This document shows positions 8,708 through 13,352 of a stretch of 14,592 bases of DNA, in pieces. This DNA comes from Pseudomonadota bacterium (GTDB taxonomy: Bacteria > Pseudomonadota > Alphaproteobacteria > Micropepsales > Micropepsaceae). How positions within the stretch are numbered: position 1 is the stretch's first letter; every line of letters starts with the position of its first letter. Location: the NCBI GenBank assembly GCA_021817355.1, contig JAKAVI010000168.1, positions 1 through 14,592 on the forward strand. The letters run 5' to 3'. A program made the translations under genes and the position numbers. The notes beneath the pieces are model-generated. The model was not told the DNA's origin. It was given only the letters and a program-made list of their open reading frames with translations, and made no database searches.

Positions 8708-11700
8708 TCATACCGCCTCCACAGCAGCAACACCAGGTAGGGACTTTATAGCGCTACGCAGTTGGGCGGTGACATGAAAGCCTTTCGGCAAGCGGATTTC
8801 AGCTTCCTGCCCATCTGCTGCGGGCACCACGAGCGTAACAATGCCCTTACCCGCTTCACGCAGTTGGGCCGCGATCGCCCCCAAGGGTTCGGTGCCCTCC
8901 AGAAAGATACGCATCCCCTCGCCTGCCTGCGCTGCCGCCTGTTCTAGATCGGTCGCCGAGAGTGCCCGCAGTTTTAACTCCTCGCCTTCACGCGAAGCAC
9001 TCACCTTGAGGAGCACAGATTTTCCGGGTTCAAGAAGTGAACGGGAGGCGGCGAGCGCCTCGGGAAAAAACATCACCTCAAACATGCCAGACGCATCCGA
9101 GAATGACACGAAAGCGTACGACTGATCATTCTTGCCCCGTCGCTCCGATTTTCTAATTATAGTACCTGCCAGCAGCGTGACGAATGACATTCGACGATCT
9201 TCGACTACTTGGACGAAGTTGGCAACCTGCAACCGCTTGAGGGCGACGTCAAAGTTGTCGAGCGGATGCCCCGAAAGATAGAACCCGATAGCAGAAAATT
9301 CTTCACCCAGTCGCTCGTGCGCAGGCCATTCGTCAATATTGGCAAGCCGAATTTCCACGGTCTCATTGCCAACTTCATCAAATAATGTTGATTGACCACT
9401 CTCTCGCTCACGGCTCGCACGCGTCGCATCACCTAATACTGCATCAGCGCTTTCAACGAGTTGGTGTCGATTTGCGTTCAGTGCGTCGAAGGCACCCGCA
9501 CGTGCAAGCATTTCAAAACAACGCTTATTGACGAGTTTCGGGTCAATTCGTCGCGCAAAATCGGCAAGTGAGGTAAAAGTTCCTCCGGACCTTCTCACCT
9601 CTACAACGTGATCCATTGCCTGGCGACCAACACCCTTGACTGCAGCGAGTGCATAAAAAATGCTAGCTCTCTCATGATCACAGGAAAACGCCGCTTCGGA
9701 ACGATTGATGTCGGGAGGTCGCACGATGATCCCAAGTCGCTGCGCTTCCTGACGGAAGATATTTAAGCGATCTGTGTTGCCAATATCGAGAGTCATCGAG
9801 GCAGCAAGAAATTCAACCGGGTAATTGGCCTTCAAATATGCAGTCTGGTAGGCGACTTGAGCATAGGCCGCAGCATGCCCCTTATTGAAGCCGTAGCCGG
9901 CAAATTTAGCCGCCTGCTCGAAGATCTGCTCGGCAATATTGGAATCTACTCCCTTTTGTTTTGCGCCTGCAACGAACCGTTCGCGATGCAATGCCATTTC
10001 AGAGGGAATCTTCTTACCCATGGCTCGTCGCAGGAGATCGGCATCACCAAGTGAATAGCCACCAAGTTCGCGTGCAATGCTCATGACATCTTCCTGATAG
10101 GTCATCACCCCATAGGTTTCCTTCAGGATTGGCTCCAGTGCAGGATGGAGGTACTCCGGCTTCTCGCGACCATTTTTACACGCAATATACTTGGGAATGG
10201 AATCCATTGGGCCTGGTCGATAGAGAGCAACCAGCGCAACCAGATCATTGATGTGATCAGGCTTCATCTTGCGCATTAGATCGCGCATGCCCTGACCTTC
10301 GAGCTGAAACACTCCCACGCTTTCGCCCCGTGCCAGCATATCGAAGGTGCGACGATCTTCAAAAGCAATAGACTGGGTATTTAGCTCAATCCCGCGTCGG
10401 GCTAAAAGTTCTTCCGCCTTGGCAATTACAGTTAGGGTCTTCAAACCTAAAAAATCGAATTTCACGAGTCCGGATTTTTCCGCGTCCTCATAATCAAATT
10501 GTGTTACCGGCATATCCGATCGGGGATCGCGATAAAGCGGAACCAACTCGTCGAGAGGTCTGTCCCCAATTACAACTCCGGCCGGATGGGTTGAAGCGTG
10601 CCTATAAAGTCCCTCTATTTTGCGTACCACATTGAAAAGGCGTACTGCCGCCGGTTCCGACTGGGCAATTTCGGAAAGCCGCGGCTCATGACTTAAGGCA
10701 TCTTCAAGCGATACCGGCTTACCCGGAGGGTTAGGAATCAATTTAGCAATGCGGTCTACAAGACCAAGCGGAAGTTGTAATACACGACCGACGTCACGGA
10801 CCGCTGCACGCGCCTGCAGGGATCCCAATGCCATAATATGAGCAACGCGATCCAGTCCATATTTGTGCTGGACATAGTGAACAACTTCGTCGCGACGTTC
10901 CTGACAAAAATCGATATCAAAATCCGGCATAGATATGCGTTCCGGGTTCAGAAAGCGTTCAAATAGTAACCCGAAACGCAAGGGATCGAGATTAGTAATA
11001 TCCAATGACCATGCGACCAGCGAGGCGGCACCCGAACCGCGTACGCCAACAGGAATACGCTGCCCTCGCGTCCATTTCATAAAATCAGAAACGATAAGAA
11101 AATAGCCGGGAAAATCCATGCGGTTGATGATCTCAAGTTCATAAGCAAGCCGCTCGTCATACTGTTCACGGGGTGCATACAGCCCACTTTCAGTCAACCG
11201 TCTTTCTAATCCACTTTGTGCCAAACGCTTTAACTCGTCCTGTGGCGAGAGACCTGAAGCTGGCTCAAACTTTGGCAATATGGGTTTGCGCTTTTTAGGT
11301 CGAAAGGCACACCTTTGCGCTATCTCTATCGTGTTGGCGATAGCTTCGGGCAAGTCAGCAAATTGCGCACTCATTTCGGCAGGAGACTTAAACCGATGTT
11401 CTCGGGTAAGCCGTCGACGATCACTTTGCGAGACATAGGTGCTGTCAGCGATACAGAGCAAGGCATCGTGTGCCTCGTACATATCTTCACGGCCAAAATG
11501 CACATCATTGGTGGCTACAAGCGGCATGGATTTGTCATAAGCCAGATCAATCAGAAACCGCTCAGCAGTGCGCTCCTCAGCAATTCCGTGACGCTGTAGC
11601 TCGATATAAAGACGGTCATCAAATATTTCTGCGAGCTGATCCAGGATTAACGATGCCGTATCTAACTGCCCGCTAGCCAGAAGCCCGTTAAGAGGACCGC

Positions 11701-12151
11701 CTGAACCGCCGGTCAAAGCGATCAAGCCCTTGCCATGCTTAGCGAGCGCCGAGGCATCCACATGTGGCCATTCTCCGGGACCGCAGGTCAGATACGCAGC
11801 ACTCAGTAATTTAACGAGATTGCGATAGCCGTCAGGATTTTGTGCCAGCAGGGGCAGGACGGGTGGTTTTTGACGCATGCCCAACCCGGAAATCTGAGGC
11901 GTTGGATCCAGATCCACCGAAACCAAGGCCCCGACGATAGGCTGCACGCCCTCATTGGCCAAGGTTTCGGAAGTGTCAAAAACACCGAACAGATTATTGT
12001 TGTCACAGATAGCGACCGCAGGCATGGCAAGAGAAGTGCAAAGCCTGGCGAGTTCCTTAGGACGAACAGCCCCTTCAAGGAGCGAATAGCAACTTTTGAC
12101 ACGTAGATGGACGAAGTTAGCGACTACCCTGCCCAATGCTTTTTCGGTCAT
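8708..12151 (-). CDS. dnaE: DNA polymerase III alpha subunit (DnaE1 type)
   Basis: The replicative polymerase, 1147 aa. In order: an N-terminal PHP domain (about 10-275, starting FVHLRVKSCYSLLEG); the C-family polymerase core with RGSGAASLVAWSL, PDFDIDFCQERR (D412, D414) and VKFDFLGLKT (D566); GPMDSIPKYI; and GYGFNKGHAAAYA. A helix-hairpin-helix region with GVGRQAMDHV, the clamp-binding QSTLF at 920-924 and a C-terminal OB domain follow. The three aspartates align with E. coli D401/D403/D555 at a constant offset. The layout and start are DnaE1, not the shorter error-prone DnaE2. ATG 12151 has AGGGA 6 nt upstream; a longer frame to 12181 lacks support. K19 replaces the histidine usual in RVHS, so the PHP site is degenerate. 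The middle is AT-richer (hand-counted lines about 47-50% GC) than the 3' end (about 68%). It is a single gene facing the aminotransferase. Confidence 0.98.
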   Translation of the reverse strand: MTEKALGRVVANFVHLRVKSCYSLLEGAVRPKELARLCTSLAMPAVAICDNNNLFGVFDTSETLANEGVQPIVGALVSVDLDPTPQISGLGMRQKPPVLPLLAQNPDGYRNLVKLLSAAYLTCGPGEWPHVDASALAKHGKGLIALTGGSGGPLNGLLASGQLDTASLILDQLAEIFDDRLYIELQRHGIAEERTAERFLIDLAYDKSMPLVATNDVHFGREDMYEAHDALLCIADSTYVSQSDRRRLTREHRFKSPAEMSAQFADLPEAIANTIEIAQRCAFRPKKRKPILPKFEPASGLSPQDELKRLAQSGLERRLTESGLYAPREQYDERLAYELEIINRMDFPGYFLIVSDFMKWTRGQRIPVGVRGSGAASLVAWSLDITNLDPLRFGLLFERFLNPERISMPDFDIDFCQERRDEVVHYVQHKYGLDRVAHIMALGSLQARAAVRDVGRVLQLPLGLVDRIAKLIPNPPGKPVSLEDALSHEPRLSEIAQSEPAAVRLFNVVRKIEGLYRHASTHPAGVVIGDRPLDELVPLYRDPRSDMPVTQFDYEDAEKSGLVKFDFLGLKTLTVIAKAEELLARRGIELNTQSIAFEDRRTFDMLARGESVGVFQLEGQGMRDLMRKMKPDHINDLVALVALYRPGPMDSIPKYIACKNGREKPEYLHPALEPILKETYGVMTYQEDVMSIARELGGYSLGDADLLRRAMGKKIPSEMALHRERFVAGAKQKGVDSNIAEQIFEQAAKFAGYGFNKGHAAAYAQVAYQTAYLKANYPVEFLAASMTLDIGNTDRLNIFRQEAQRLGIIVRPPDINRSEAAFSCDHERASIFYALAAVKGVGRQAMDHVVEVRRSGGTFTSLADFARRIDPKLVNKRCFEMLARAGAFDALNANRHQLVESADAVLGDATRASRERESGQSTLFDEVGNETVEIRLANIDEWPAHERLGEEFSAIGFYLSGHPLDNFDVALKRLQVANFVQVVEDRRMSFVTLLAGTIIRKSERRGKNDQSYAFVSFSDASGMFEVMFFPEALAASRSLLEPGKSVLLKVSASREGEELKLRALSATDLEQAAAQAGEGMRIFLEGTEPLGAIAAQLREAGKGIVTLVVPAADGQEAEIRLPKGFHVTAQLRSAIKSLPGVAAVEAV

Positions 12152-12247
12152 ACCGCATCCCTGCCCCTGCGCACTCCACACCTAGCCCGGGCGGGCGGTG
12201 CACGAAACGGCACATTAGCGACTTTCCACAGCCTATCGATTGTGCCC
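12152..12247. other. Upstream region of dnaE
   Basis: This short non-coding stretch lies between the TnpB relic and the dnaE start. It includes the dnaE Shine-Dalgarno (AGGGA) and a GC-rich run around 12184-12196 (GCCCGGGC-like). I could not identify a convincing -35/-10 pair here. Transcription may start farther up in the islet or from a weak promoter I cannot see. Confidence 0.4.
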
Positions 12248-12622
12248 CTAACTTCCTCTCCGCCCTGACGGGCGGAGGTTGCGGCGAGACGCATCATACG
12301 GCCTGCAGCTGGTTCTTGCGTCATCGGGCTGGCTGATGTGAGCGGGAGGCACCTCTAACAGCCTGCCGCCGTGATCCGCCAGCTTGTAGTTTGGCAGGGT
12401 GTGGACAAGCATTGCCTCTTGCCACTCCACCTCGGCCCGCTGCGGCGCCACCTCGCAGCGTCGGCTGGCAAAACTGAACTTTGGCCGGGGCAATACCGGT
12501 CACGGCACGGCTCTGGCGCGAGGTTATAGACGAACTGGCACGCACCAGCGATCTGCCATGTCTGTGCTCCTGCCCAGGCGTCGGGTAGAGGCGCAACAGT
12601 GCAGCTTTGTGTTCGATCGTGA
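12248..12622 (-). pseudogene. Decayed TnpB (IS200/IS605 OrfB) relic, frameshifted and internally deleted
   Basis: TnpB is the RNA-guided nuclease of IS200/IS605-type transposons. Here only broken pieces remain, in three minus-strand frames. Frame a (about 12622-12569) reads IEHKAALLRLYPTPGQE, the family's N-terminus. Frame b (about 12566-12485) continues with QTWQIAGACQFVYNLA. Frame c (12484-12248) has KFSFASRRCEV, RAEVEWQEAMLVHTL, and then directly YKLADHGG and RLLEVPPAHISQ. That last motif normally precedes the C-terminal zinc finger, some 250 residues later. So there are frameshifts near 12565 and 12482 and a large deletion at about 12386-12397 that removes the whole RuvC catalytic core. 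After ISQ the zinc-finger cysteines are lost and the frame ends at 12248. It cannot be an active nuclease. Family recognition is from memory of conserved motifs. Confidence 0.8.
12258..12277. repeat. Perfect 8-bp hairpin at the end of the TnpB relic
   Basis: CTCCGCCC and GGGCGGAG are separated by a 4-base loop (TGAC on the plus strand). The hairpin overlaps the last codons of the relic on its 3' side, where IS200/IS605 elements carry their right-end hairpin and the guide-RNA scaffold. It is not followed by a T-run on either strand, so it is not a typical intrinsic terminator. Assignment as a right-end remnant is inference. Confidence 0.55.
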
Positions 12623-12653
12623 GGAAAACATACCATTAACATCGGAGTTTGCT

Positions 12654-12674
12654 GGGCTGAGCTCCGCTCAGGCC
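12654..12674 (-). terminator. Hairpin at the 3' end of the 35-codon gene, terminator-like without T-run
   Basis: On the minus strand CTGAGC-GGA-GCTCAG forms a perfect 6-bp stem with a 3-base loop. It is extended by two G-C pairs beyond one mismatch. The TGA stop of the small gene lies inside the left arm. No U-tract follows, so it may protect the transcript end or attenuate read-through to dnaE rather than terminate it fully. Confidence 0.35.
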
Positions 12675-12775
12675 ATTCCGATGAACCCTACAGCCGCATG
12701 AGCCAGAACGAACGTAGCAGCTATAAAGGTGATCAGCCCTGCTCCAGCGATCATGTCGGAAACCCAGATTTTCAT
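12668..12775 (-). CDS. 35-aa single-pass membrane peptide, LexA-box promoter (not previously recognised)
   Basis: The frame starts ATG at 12775 and ends TGA at 12668, and encodes a peptide of 35 residues. It has a short N-terminus, MKIWVSD, with one lysine and one aspartate. An uninterrupted hydrophobic segment runs from about residue 8 to the end (GLITFIAATFVLAHAAVGF), with only a histidine as a polar residue. It is best read as one inner-membrane helix. The strongest evidence that it is real is upstream. AAGGAGG lies 9 nt before the ATG, one of the best Shine-Dalgarnos in the window, and beyond it is a promoter with a perfect TTGACA -35 framed by two LexA boxes. I recognise no homologue. 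Small SOS-controlled membrane peptides are known: Caulobacter SidA, which blocks FtsW, and E. coli TisB, a pore-forming toxin. By analogy this could be a division inhibitor or membrane-depolarising peptide; that is inference. Confidence 0.75.
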   Translation of the reverse strand: MKIWVSDMIAGAGLITFIAATFVLAHAAVGFIGMA

Positions 12776-12803
12776 ATTGAAGGCCCTCCTTGTTGGTGGA
12801 CCG

Positions 12804-12832
12804 AGCTAAATGTTCTTTTTTTGTTCTGTCAA
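12804..12832 (-). promoter_or_regulatory. Promoter of the 35-codon gene: perfect -35 between two LexA boxes
   Basis: On the minus strand a perfect TTGACA (12832-12827) is followed after 17 bases by TTAGCT (12809-12804), a poor -10. Transcription would start near 12797, about 20 nt before the ATG, leaving a short leader made mostly of the Shine-Dalgarno. The -35 lies exactly between two 15-bp LexA boxes, and the downstream box fills the spacer, so bound repressor would block RNA polymerase directly. Confidence 0.65.
12812..12826. promoter_or_regulatory. LexA box 1, GTTC-N7-GTTC
   Basis: On the plus strand GTTC at 12812-12815 and GTTC at 12823-12826 are exactly 7 bases apart, with an all-T spacer. 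This matches the alphaproteobacterial SOS box, a direct repeat unlike the E. coli CTGT-N8-ACAG palindrome. The T-rich spacer is also typical of such boxes. It covers the -35/-10 spacer of the minus-strand promoter. Confidence 0.75.
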
Positions 12833-12847
12833 GAACATAAACAGAAC
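12833..12847. promoter_or_regulatory. LexA box 2, GAAC-N7-GAAC (inverted orientation)
   Basis: GAAC at 12833-12836 and GAAC at 12844-12847 are exactly 7 bases apart, the reverse-strand form of the same box. It lies directly upstream of the TTGACA. With box 1 it makes a fully symmetric 38-bp array (12811-12848): two TGTTCT and two AGAACA hexamers with spacers of 5, 4 and 5 bases. Such symmetry is unlikely by chance and suggests cooperative binding of two repressor dimers. Confidence 0.75.
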
Positions 12848-12873
12848 ATTGTCGCCCATTGGGGTTGAAATTG

Positions 12874-12901
12874 TTGCCTGGGACCTTGTTTAGTGTATAA
12901 A
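12874..12901 (+). promoter_or_regulatory. Promoter of the hicB-like gene
   Basis: TTGCCT (12874-12879) and TATAAA (12896-12901) are 16 bases apart, a plausible sigma-70 promoter pointing into the hicB-like gene. Transcription would start near 12908, leaving a leader of about 20 nt. The -10 overlaps the left arm of the palindrome at 12898-12923. The LexA array ends 26 bp upstream of this -35, so it probably does not block this promoter directly. Confidence 0.55.
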
Positions 12902-12923
12902 GTGTGTCAAAAGGCACACTTTA
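12898..12923. promoter_or_regulatory. Palindrome over the hicB -10 and leader, probable autoregulatory operator
   Basis: TAAAGTGTG (12898-12906) and CACACTTTA (12915-12923) are perfect 9-bp inverted arms with an 8-base spacer. Allowing one mismatch, the symmetry extends to 12894-12927, into the ATG. It covers most of the -10 and the probable start site. HicB antitoxins bind palindromic operators in their own promoters through their C-terminal DNA-binding domain, so this is the natural candidate site for the adjacent gene. Confidence 0.65.
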
Positions 12924-12926
12924 CAC

Positions 12927-13352
12927 ATGTCAAAGCGCTATTATCCCGCCGTAATTGAGCGGTCCGAAGGCGGAGCGATTGCCGTCTGGTTTCCGGATTT
13001 TCCGGACTGCGTAGCTGCCGCCAGCACGCAGGATATAGCAGTGCAAAAGGCGGAACACGCCCTTCAGATGACAGTCGCCAAGCAGGCCGAAGACGACAAG
13101 GCCCCGCCAACTCCCAGCAGCATGGAGACGATACCATTACCCAAGAGTAGCAATGTGATCGCCCTTGCCTTGATCGGAGTCGACCTTCCCGATCCGTCCG
13201 AGCGGGTTAATATTTATCTGCCCAGAAGCCTGTTGTCAGAGGCGGACACATATGCTGAAACCCTTGGCATGAGCCGCTCTAGCTTCTTTGGCTTGGCGAT
13301 ATCCATAATGCTGGGCCGCCGACCACCCCTGCCACGCGCGCCCGCGCCCTAA
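12927..13352 (+). CDS. hicB: HicB-type antitoxin / regulator, no hicA partner present
   Basis: The 141-aa protein has two parts. Residues 1 to about 60 match the HicB partial RNase-H fold: [23 protein letters not shown], and AEHALQMTV on a helix. Residues about 91-132 ([21 protein letters not shown] with [15 protein letters not shown]) look like a ribbon-helix-helix DNA-binding domain. A low-complexity linker (about 54-72, with PPTPSS) joins them. In complete systems HicB neutralises the mRNA interferase HicA, a roughly 60-aa dsRBD-like protein encoded next to it. No hicA frame exists on either side. The gene therefore looks like an orphan antitoxin, now perhaps a regulator only. The Shine-Dalgarno is weak: AAAGG, 12 nt from the ATG. 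Its TAA overlaps the lolD stop by a few bases. Confidence 0.88.

What the first reader, a model, noticed from the sequence alone, without database searches (positions are those of the whole stretch)
12811..12848. Symmetric double LexA array framing a perfect -35
Seen directly: GTTC-N7-GTTC at 12812-12826 and GAAC-N7-GAAC at 12833-12847, with the 6 bases between them being TTGACA on the minus strand. The unit is four hexamers with spacers 5, 4, 5 and full twofold symmetry. Known: GTTC-N7-GTTC is the LexA box of Alphaproteobacteria. Most SOS promoters have one box; two inverted boxes with the -35 exactly at the centre imply very tight, possibly cooperative repression. Such tight control is expected for a harmful product. 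The poor -10 would further lower leak.
Basis: partly seen in the sequence, partly recalled or inferred. Interest (0 to 1): 0.82.

Follow-up and report, generated by a model that had tools for sequence, protein, structure and literature searches.

The report
Double LexA switch for SidA-like peptide
Two mirrored binding sites for the DNA-damage repressor LexA flank a promoter that drives an unannotated 35-residue membrane peptide, most likely a relative of Caulobacter's SidA, which stops cell division while DNA is repaired.

Summary
In detail: GTTC-N7-GTTC (12812-12826) and GAAC-N7-GAAC (12833-12847) flank TTGACA on the minus strand. Downstream lie a Shine-Dalgarno site and a 35-aa hydrophobic ORF (12775-12668) upstream of dnaE. 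The exact double-box-plus-TTGACA pattern has five matches in a collection of 84,980 species genomes, and all five precede a similar peptide. In 96 genomes of the closest relative's order, ten perfect inverted pairs occur, all before such a peptide. Of 64 promoters of this peptide family with a perfect downstream box, 60 keep an upstream box at 7/8 or better. The same motif precedes lexA (5 of 5) and recA (6 of 10, not in G003, the nearest relative). In a family inferred to be Caulobacteraceae, 50 of 55 dnaE genes have a 28-31-aa peptide upstream (41 are 29 aa, SidA's length); 49 of those 50 carry two LexA-type boxes, in tandem. Profiles link the window peptide to SidA only through intermediates. 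Best reading: a LexA-repressed SidA-type division inhibitor with a doubled operator, a new variant of a known kind. LexA binding, cooperativity and division block are inferred.

The parts
12833..12847 (-). upstream LexA box, GTTCTGTTTATGTTC read on the minus strand, just 5' of the -35
   Evidence: exact match; in relatives an upstream box at 7/8 or better is kept in 60 of 64 promoters, perfect in 10
12812..12826 (-). downstream LexA box, GAACAAAAAAAGAAC read on the minus strand, in the -35/-10 spacer
   Evidence: exact match; perfect in 64 of 68 family loci including the window
12827..12832 (-). -35 hexamer TTGACA between the two boxes
   Evidence: sequence; TTGACA follows the upstream GTTC in 25 of 64 promoters in the table
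12805..12810 (-). putative weak -10, TTTAGC at spacing 16 (alternative TTAGCT at 12804-12809)
   Evidence: best of spacings 15-18, 3 of 6 matches; inferred
12785..12789 (-). Shine-Dalgarno GGAGG
   Evidence: sequence
12668..12775 (-). 35-aa SidA-like membrane peptide gene (MKIWVSDMIAGAGLITFIAATFVLAHAAVGFIGMA)
   Evidence: ORF; maximum 17-residue hydropathy 2.22; homologues in 65 of 96 genomes of the order at E <= 0.01
12640..12683 (-). inverted repeat across the end of the gene, possible terminator (no U tract)
   Evidence: arms 22 nt, 73% complementary; not listed by the terminator scan
8708..12151 (-). dnaE, DNA polymerase III alpha subunit, downstream on the same strand (context; start taken at MTEKALGR)
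   Evidence: ORF; N-terminus 91% identical to that of G003; the name dnaE is recalled from sequence, not from a family search

Best explanation
The segment is the SOS operator-promoter of a SidA-type division-inhibitor gene. Under normal growth two LexA dimers, one on each GTTC-N7-GTTC box, cover the DNA just upstream of the -35 and the -35/-10 spacer and keep RNA polymerase off. After DNA damage RecA-stimulated self-cleavage of LexA frees the promoter, and a 35-aa single-pass inner-membrane peptide is made that holds septum synthesis (by analogy with SidA, through FtsW/FtsN) until repair is done. Shown by sequence comparison: both boxes, their conservation at this gene, the peptide family and its place upstream of dnaE. 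Inferred: LexA occupancy, induction, and the division block.
For: Boxes and -35. All five matches of the full pattern in genome contigs precede a similar peptide. Ten perfect inverted pairs in 96 whole genomes, nine at peptides found by the profile and one (L276) at a peptide recognised by eye; the reversed-pattern control hit 2 of 96 genomes. Upstream box at 7/8 or better in 60 of 64 promoters, against a shuffle mean of 1.8 and maximum of 6; at N7 53 of 64 match GTTC in at least 3 of 4 positions, at most 11 of 64 at other spacings from 3 to 12. Same motif upstream of lexA, 5 of 5, and recA, 6 of 10. Of 110 dnaE genes examined out of 151 matched in a class sample, 22 have a perfect box within 900 nt upstream (shuffle mean 2.1); 16 of these have a small hydrophobic ORF after the box, 13 of them outside the window's order. 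In the family of G283, 50 of 55 dnaE genes have a 28-31-aa peptide upstream, 41 of them 29 aa, the length of SidA (PMC4211646). Profile comparison: window family to class intermediates 0 of 100 column shuffles reach the score (HHalign probability 90); intermediates to the 29-aa set 0 of 100 (86).
Against: No binding, expression or phenotype data. Direct comparison of the window family with the 29-aa set is not significant (probability 4; 1 of 100 shuffles scores as high). 31 of 96 genomes of the order give no peptide match, and only 4 of 289 in the first class sample gave strong matches, all in one order. One clear peptide homologue, L063, has no box. recA of G003, the nearest relative, and of three others lacks a perfect box. 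The identification of G283's family as Caulobacteraceae is inferred. The -10 is poor.
Confidence: 0.76

Rival explanations
1. The peptide is an SOS-induced type I toxin of the TisB/DinQ kind that depolarises the membrane and makes dormant cells, with an antisense RNA antitoxin, rather than a divisome inhibitor.
For: Small, hydrophobic, single predicted membrane span, LexA-type control; TisB and DinQ are SOS-controlled membrane peptides (PMC11449926 and PMC3567139, abstract starts).
Against: Position upstream of dnaE and the profile chain point to the 29-aa SidA set. No Rfam family in the window. No antisense gene was searched for beyond that.
Confidence: 0.13
2. A different repressor, for example an XRE-type protein reading TGTTCT-N4-AGAACA, uses the inner palindrome.
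For: The inner two hexamers form a perfect palindrome in the window.
Against: The distance between the inner half-sites is not kept: gaps of 6, 12 and 14 are all common, while the N7 spacing inside each box is. The same N7 motif lies before lexA and recA.
Confidence: 0.05
3. Only the downstream box works; the upstream one is a by-product of the sequence preferred around the -35.
For: The downstream box is perfect in 64 of 68 loci, but the upstream box is perfect in only 10 of 64 and its 5' half is GATC in 34 and GGTC in 10 of 60. In the class sample, 14 of the 16 loci with peptide have one perfect box or one pair in which single boxes dominate: only L106, L116 and L157 have two.
Against: The 5' half-site sits 11 bases from the GTTC next to the -35, outside any promoter element, and is kept at N7 far above other spacings. 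In the G283 family a second box is also kept, 49 of 50.
Confidence: 0.2

Closest known systems
SidA of Caulobacter crescentus (CCNA_02004), SOS-induced division inhibitor
   Same: Small inner-membrane peptide (29 aa; PMC4211646, passages), LexA-repressed, harmful when derepressed (PMC12700426, passages). Peptides of 29 aa lie upstream of dnaE in the inferred Caulobacteraceae, as here.
   Different: The window peptide is 35 aa and its sequence is linked to the 29-aa set only through intermediates. Its two boxes are inverted about the -35; in the inferred Caulobacteraceae they are in tandem, mostly 17-18 nt apart. Division block untested.
Multi-box LexA operators such as E. coli lexA (two operators; PMC9210283, abstract start)
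   Same: Two LexA sites at one promoter.
   Different: E. coli boxes are inverted repeats (TACTG-N10-CAGTA type, PMC9578287 Table 1); here each box is a direct repeat and the pair is mirrored about the -35.
YneA (Bacillus subtilis) and SosA (Staphylococcus aureus), SOS-induced membrane division inhibitors (abstract starts)
   Same: SOS-induced, small membrane-bound, block division; YneA acts on FtsW.
   Different: No sequence comparison was made; treated as analogues only.

Membership tests
Alphaproteobacterial LexA box / SOS regulon | GTTC-N7-GTTC in the promoter | tested here: met
   two perfect copies; consensus as in PMC9578287 and PMC12700426 (passages)
Alphaproteobacterial LexA box / SOS regulon | the clade's own SOS core genes carry the same motif | tested here: met
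   lexA 5 of 5; recA 6 of 10, absent in perfect form from G003, G331, G001 and G009; the window's own genome is not held
Alphaproteobacterial LexA box / SOS regulon | LexA binds and damage induces | not testable with these tools
   needs gel shift, footprint, RNA-seq
SidA | very small single-span membrane peptide | tested here: met
   35 aa, maximum 17-residue hydropathy 2.22; span predicted by hydropathy only
SidA | gene upstream of dnaE on the same strand | tested here: met
   window; for Caulobacter itself inferred from the G283 family; in print only sidA = CCNA_02004 (PMC10769358) and dnaE = CC1926 (PMC1839093), two numbering systems
SidA | sequence homology to SidA | tested here: inconclusive
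   direct profile score not significant (1 of 100 shuffles as high); significant through intermediates (0 of 100 at each step). No published SidA sequence was available to compare
SidA | binds FtsW/FtsN and blocks division | not testable with these tools
   known for SidA (PMC4211646, passages)
TisB/DinQ type I toxin-antitoxin | antisense RNA antitoxin | tested here: inconclusive
   no Rfam match in the window; no other search made

The most novel reading that the evidence does not exclude
The doubled LexA operator is a hallmark of the sidA division-checkpoint gene across Alphaproteobacteria, reached in two geometries: inverted about the -35 in the window's order and tandem in the Caulobacteraceae-like family. 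In the window's lineage, with both boxes perfect and 21 bp apart (two helical turns), two LexA dimers lie on one DNA face about a dyad at the -35 and act as one cooperative lock, so that the checkpoint peptide is released only below a set LexA level.
Probability: 0.3. Interest if true: 0.7.

Novelty: new variant of a known kind. Interest (0 to 1): 0.55.

Why it matters
SOS division inhibitors are too small and too divergent for ordinary annotation: none of the peptides tried has a Pfam or NCBIfam match. The operator gives a way to find them: a LexA box upstream of dnaE points to a SidA-like peptide in many alphaproteobacterial groups. The doubled operator at this one gene also makes an old question testable: do cells use LexA operator number and geometry, or promoter strength, to set when division stops? 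The Caulobacter study that favours promoter strength reports a single box at about 97% of SOS promoters (PMC12700426, passages), so a promoter with two conserved boxes is a useful exception.

Tried and rejected
Tried and left: (1) The window's own genome: not held, so lexA and recA were tested in relatives. (2) Rfam: no match in the window. (3) Pfam and NCBIfam for the peptide: none at E <= 1. (4) Type I toxin with antisense RNA: no support found, not excluded. (5) An XRE-type repressor on the inner palindrome: the inner gap is not conserved. (6) A match of the first class profile search below about E = 1e-4: these lie inside larger ORFs or lack boxes and were not counted. (7) Searches returned the same 96 genomes as and add nothing. 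(8) Modell 2011 and da Rocha 2008 (PubMed ids recalled): not held, so it cannot be said that two boxes at sidA are unreported; searches that showed no such report in the listed abstracts or passages were. (9) One search was superseded, because some rows were hand-picked or trimmed and one (L273) held an unchecked residue; the outcome is the same in direction but the scores are lower. (10) In the count, for about seven promoters the nearest GTTC is an extra copy inside the gap; avoids this. In one search one perfect pair (L045, three boxes) is entered at offset 32 where its nearer box is at 21.

Full report
Check of the observation. The array is present as described at 12811-12848: two perfect GTTC-N7-GTTC boxes in opposite orientation with TTGACA (minus strand) exactly between them. 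The hexamers are symmetric, the spacers are not (89% arm complementarity). An inverted pair with a gap up to 20 did not occur in 1000 Markov copies of the window. The -10 is weak.

What it controls. On the minus strand, a GGAGG at 12785-12789 precedes a 35-codon ORF, 12775-12668, MKIWVSDMIAGAGLITFIAATFVLAHAAVGFIGMA, with one strongly hydrophobic stretch (2.22 over 17 residues). The same strand continues into dnaE, whose first Met (MTEKALGR) is at 12151. The peptide has no Pfam or NCBIfam match. A profile search of 5.8 billion proteins gave 530 proteins at E <= 10; of the 120 listed none has a Pfam domain, and the names shown are 'hypothetical protein' except one 'predicted permease' and one described as a hypothetical protein of an alphaproteobacterial MAG.

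Same layout elsewhere. GTTCN7GTTCTGTCAAGAACN7GAAC has five exact matches in genome contigs, all alphaproteobacterial MAGs. All five lie before a 33-35-aa peptide 36-89% identical to that of the window. A profile of these six found three further genomes at E < 1e-6 (L013-L015), also with a perfect box and also directly upstream of dnaE. In the order of G003, the nearest relative (91% over the DnaE N-terminus), 65 of 96 genomes have a match at E <= 0.01; rows whose sequences were in the profile match by construction. I read 67 of the 68 listed places plus the window. Of these 68, 64 have a perfect downstream box; four do not: L063 (a clear peptide homologue) and L099, L104, L105 (weak or second matches). 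Of the 64, 60 have an upstream box with an exact 3' half and at least 3 of 4 in the 5' half; L046, L074, L080 and L090 do not. Ten upstream boxes are perfect; the others mostly have GATC (34) or GGTC (10) as 5' half. Shuffled promoters give a box at this level in 1.8 of 64 on average, at most 6. The species are related, so these counts are not independent events.

Whole-genome uniqueness. Among the 96 genomes, the perfect inverted pair with a gap of 0-20 occurs at ten places in ten genomes; the control pattern occurs in two genomes. Nine places are the peptide loci. The tenth (G297, L276) lies before MSASAFLKEASALIGLFVTLYMWSLVALALQS, which the profile had not found and which I judge SidA-like by eye; it sits beside a dusA-like gene, not dnaE.

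Is the repressor LexA? All five genomes of L001-L005 have LexA with GTTCTA(C/G)TTTAGTTC just upstream of the main lexA gene; a second LexA-domain gene in G002 has none. recA has a perfect box within 500 nt upstream in 6 of 10 genomes; G003, G331, G001 and G009 have none. The distance between inner half-sites varies (gaps 6, 12 and 14 common) while N7 inside each box is kept, which fits LexA boxes better than a palindrome-reading repressor.

Beyond the order. In a class sample 151 of 190 genomes matched the DnaE N-terminus. I read upstream of 110 of the 151. 22 have a perfect box within 900 nt (shuffle mean 2.1). 16 of these have a small hydrophobic ORF right after the box: three from the window's order (L106-L108) and 13 others. 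The other six boxes lie within 100 nt of dnaE without such an ORF. Most of the 13 have one box, placed just after a TTGAC; L116 and L157 have two in inverted orientation, as does L106 of the order.

Link to SidA. Caulobacter SidA is a 29-aa inner-membrane protein that acts on FtsW (PMC4211646, passages); sidA is CCNA_02004 (PMC10769358, one passage) and dnaE is CC1926 (PMC1839093, passages). Of 60 genomes, 55 matched DnaE. 50 of the 55 have a 28-31-aa peptide with a motif I wrote after seeing the first 30 loci; 41 are exactly 29 aa, for example MVQFCRDSLALASVAGFVWMVCQATVLLS; their starts lie 133-373 nt before the DnaE match. 49 of the 50 have two same-orientation boxes at 7/8 or better (shuffle mean 0.3, maximum 2); 32 have at least one perfect box and 11 have two; offsets are mostly 17-18. 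The published Caulobacter box GTTCttgttatGTTC (PMC12700426) occurs in 70 of 199 genomes of the family, the reversed control in 1. I therefore take this family as Caulobacteraceae and the peptides as SidA; both are inferences. Perfect tandem pairs occur at 16 places in 60 genomes, 11 of them at this peptide; the other five lie before lexA (1), between mraZ and an RNase P RNA-like sequence (2), and between a coaBC-like and a lipoprotein gene (2), names given by eye; control 1. So doubled boxes are not exclusive to sidA there.

Homology. Direct HHalign of the window family (64) with the 29-aa set (50): probability 4, 1 of 100 column shuffles as high. Window family with the 14 class intermediates: probability 90, 0 of 100. 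Intermediates with the 29-aa set: probability 86, 0 of 100 (one search is an earlier run on hand-picked rows). The link is transitive and rests on short hydrophobic sequences; position and regulation agree with it.

Mechanism. LexA dimers on the two boxes would cover the region upstream of the -35 and the spacer, excluding RNA polymerase; cleavage after damage would release the peptide, which would hold the divisome. Loss of LexA in Caulobacter causes extreme filamentation through sidA (PMC12700426), so leak is costly. In the window's lineage the two perfect boxes are 21 bp apart, two turns, so dimers could sit on one face; but related promoters use 20-22 and 27-30, so a fixed contact is not required across the order. 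In Caulobacter sidA is induced early from a strong promoter and leaks heterogeneously (PMC12700426), so two boxes need not mean late or perfectly tight.

Novelty. The product type is known, the operator arrangement is a variant. Whether two boxes at sidA have been described I cannot say: the two key papers are not held. PMC12700426 states that about 97% of SOS promoters carry one box, without naming the exception in the passages seen.

Noticed in passing
window 12239-12667: About 429 bp inserted between the peptide gene and dnaE compared with L003 and L005, where about 10 bp lie there; 12422-12623 is 77.9% identical to a TnpB-family gene region of an Azospirillum plasmid (one record of the plasmid collection), a likely IS200/IS605-type remnant. 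The Pfam OrfB helix-turn-helix match is below its cut-off.
   Followed up: partly
window 12894-13352: HicB-like antitoxin gene (PF15919) diverging from the peptide gene, with a 13-nt inverted repeat at its start (12894-12927). No hicA was noticed among the window's ORFs (not searched for). A similar ORF lies near the peptide gene in L001, L003 and L014.
   Followed up: partly
L318 and L319 (G408, G421): Perfect tandem LexA-type box pair between an mraZ-like gene and an RNase P RNA-like sequence, which would put the division gene cluster next to an SOS operator (names by eye).
   Followed up: no
L276 (G297): SidA-like peptide with a perfect inverted box pair moved away from dnaE to beside a dusA-like gene.
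   Followed up: partly
L063 (G312): Clear peptide homologue (MEWLKDAAAGVGLMLFLACSYVLTGAAQAVMAAG) whose upstream 140 nt hold no box at 7/8 or better.
   Followed up: no
L011 (G002): A second, shorter LexA-domain gene (147-aa frame) without the box upstream.
   Followed up: no
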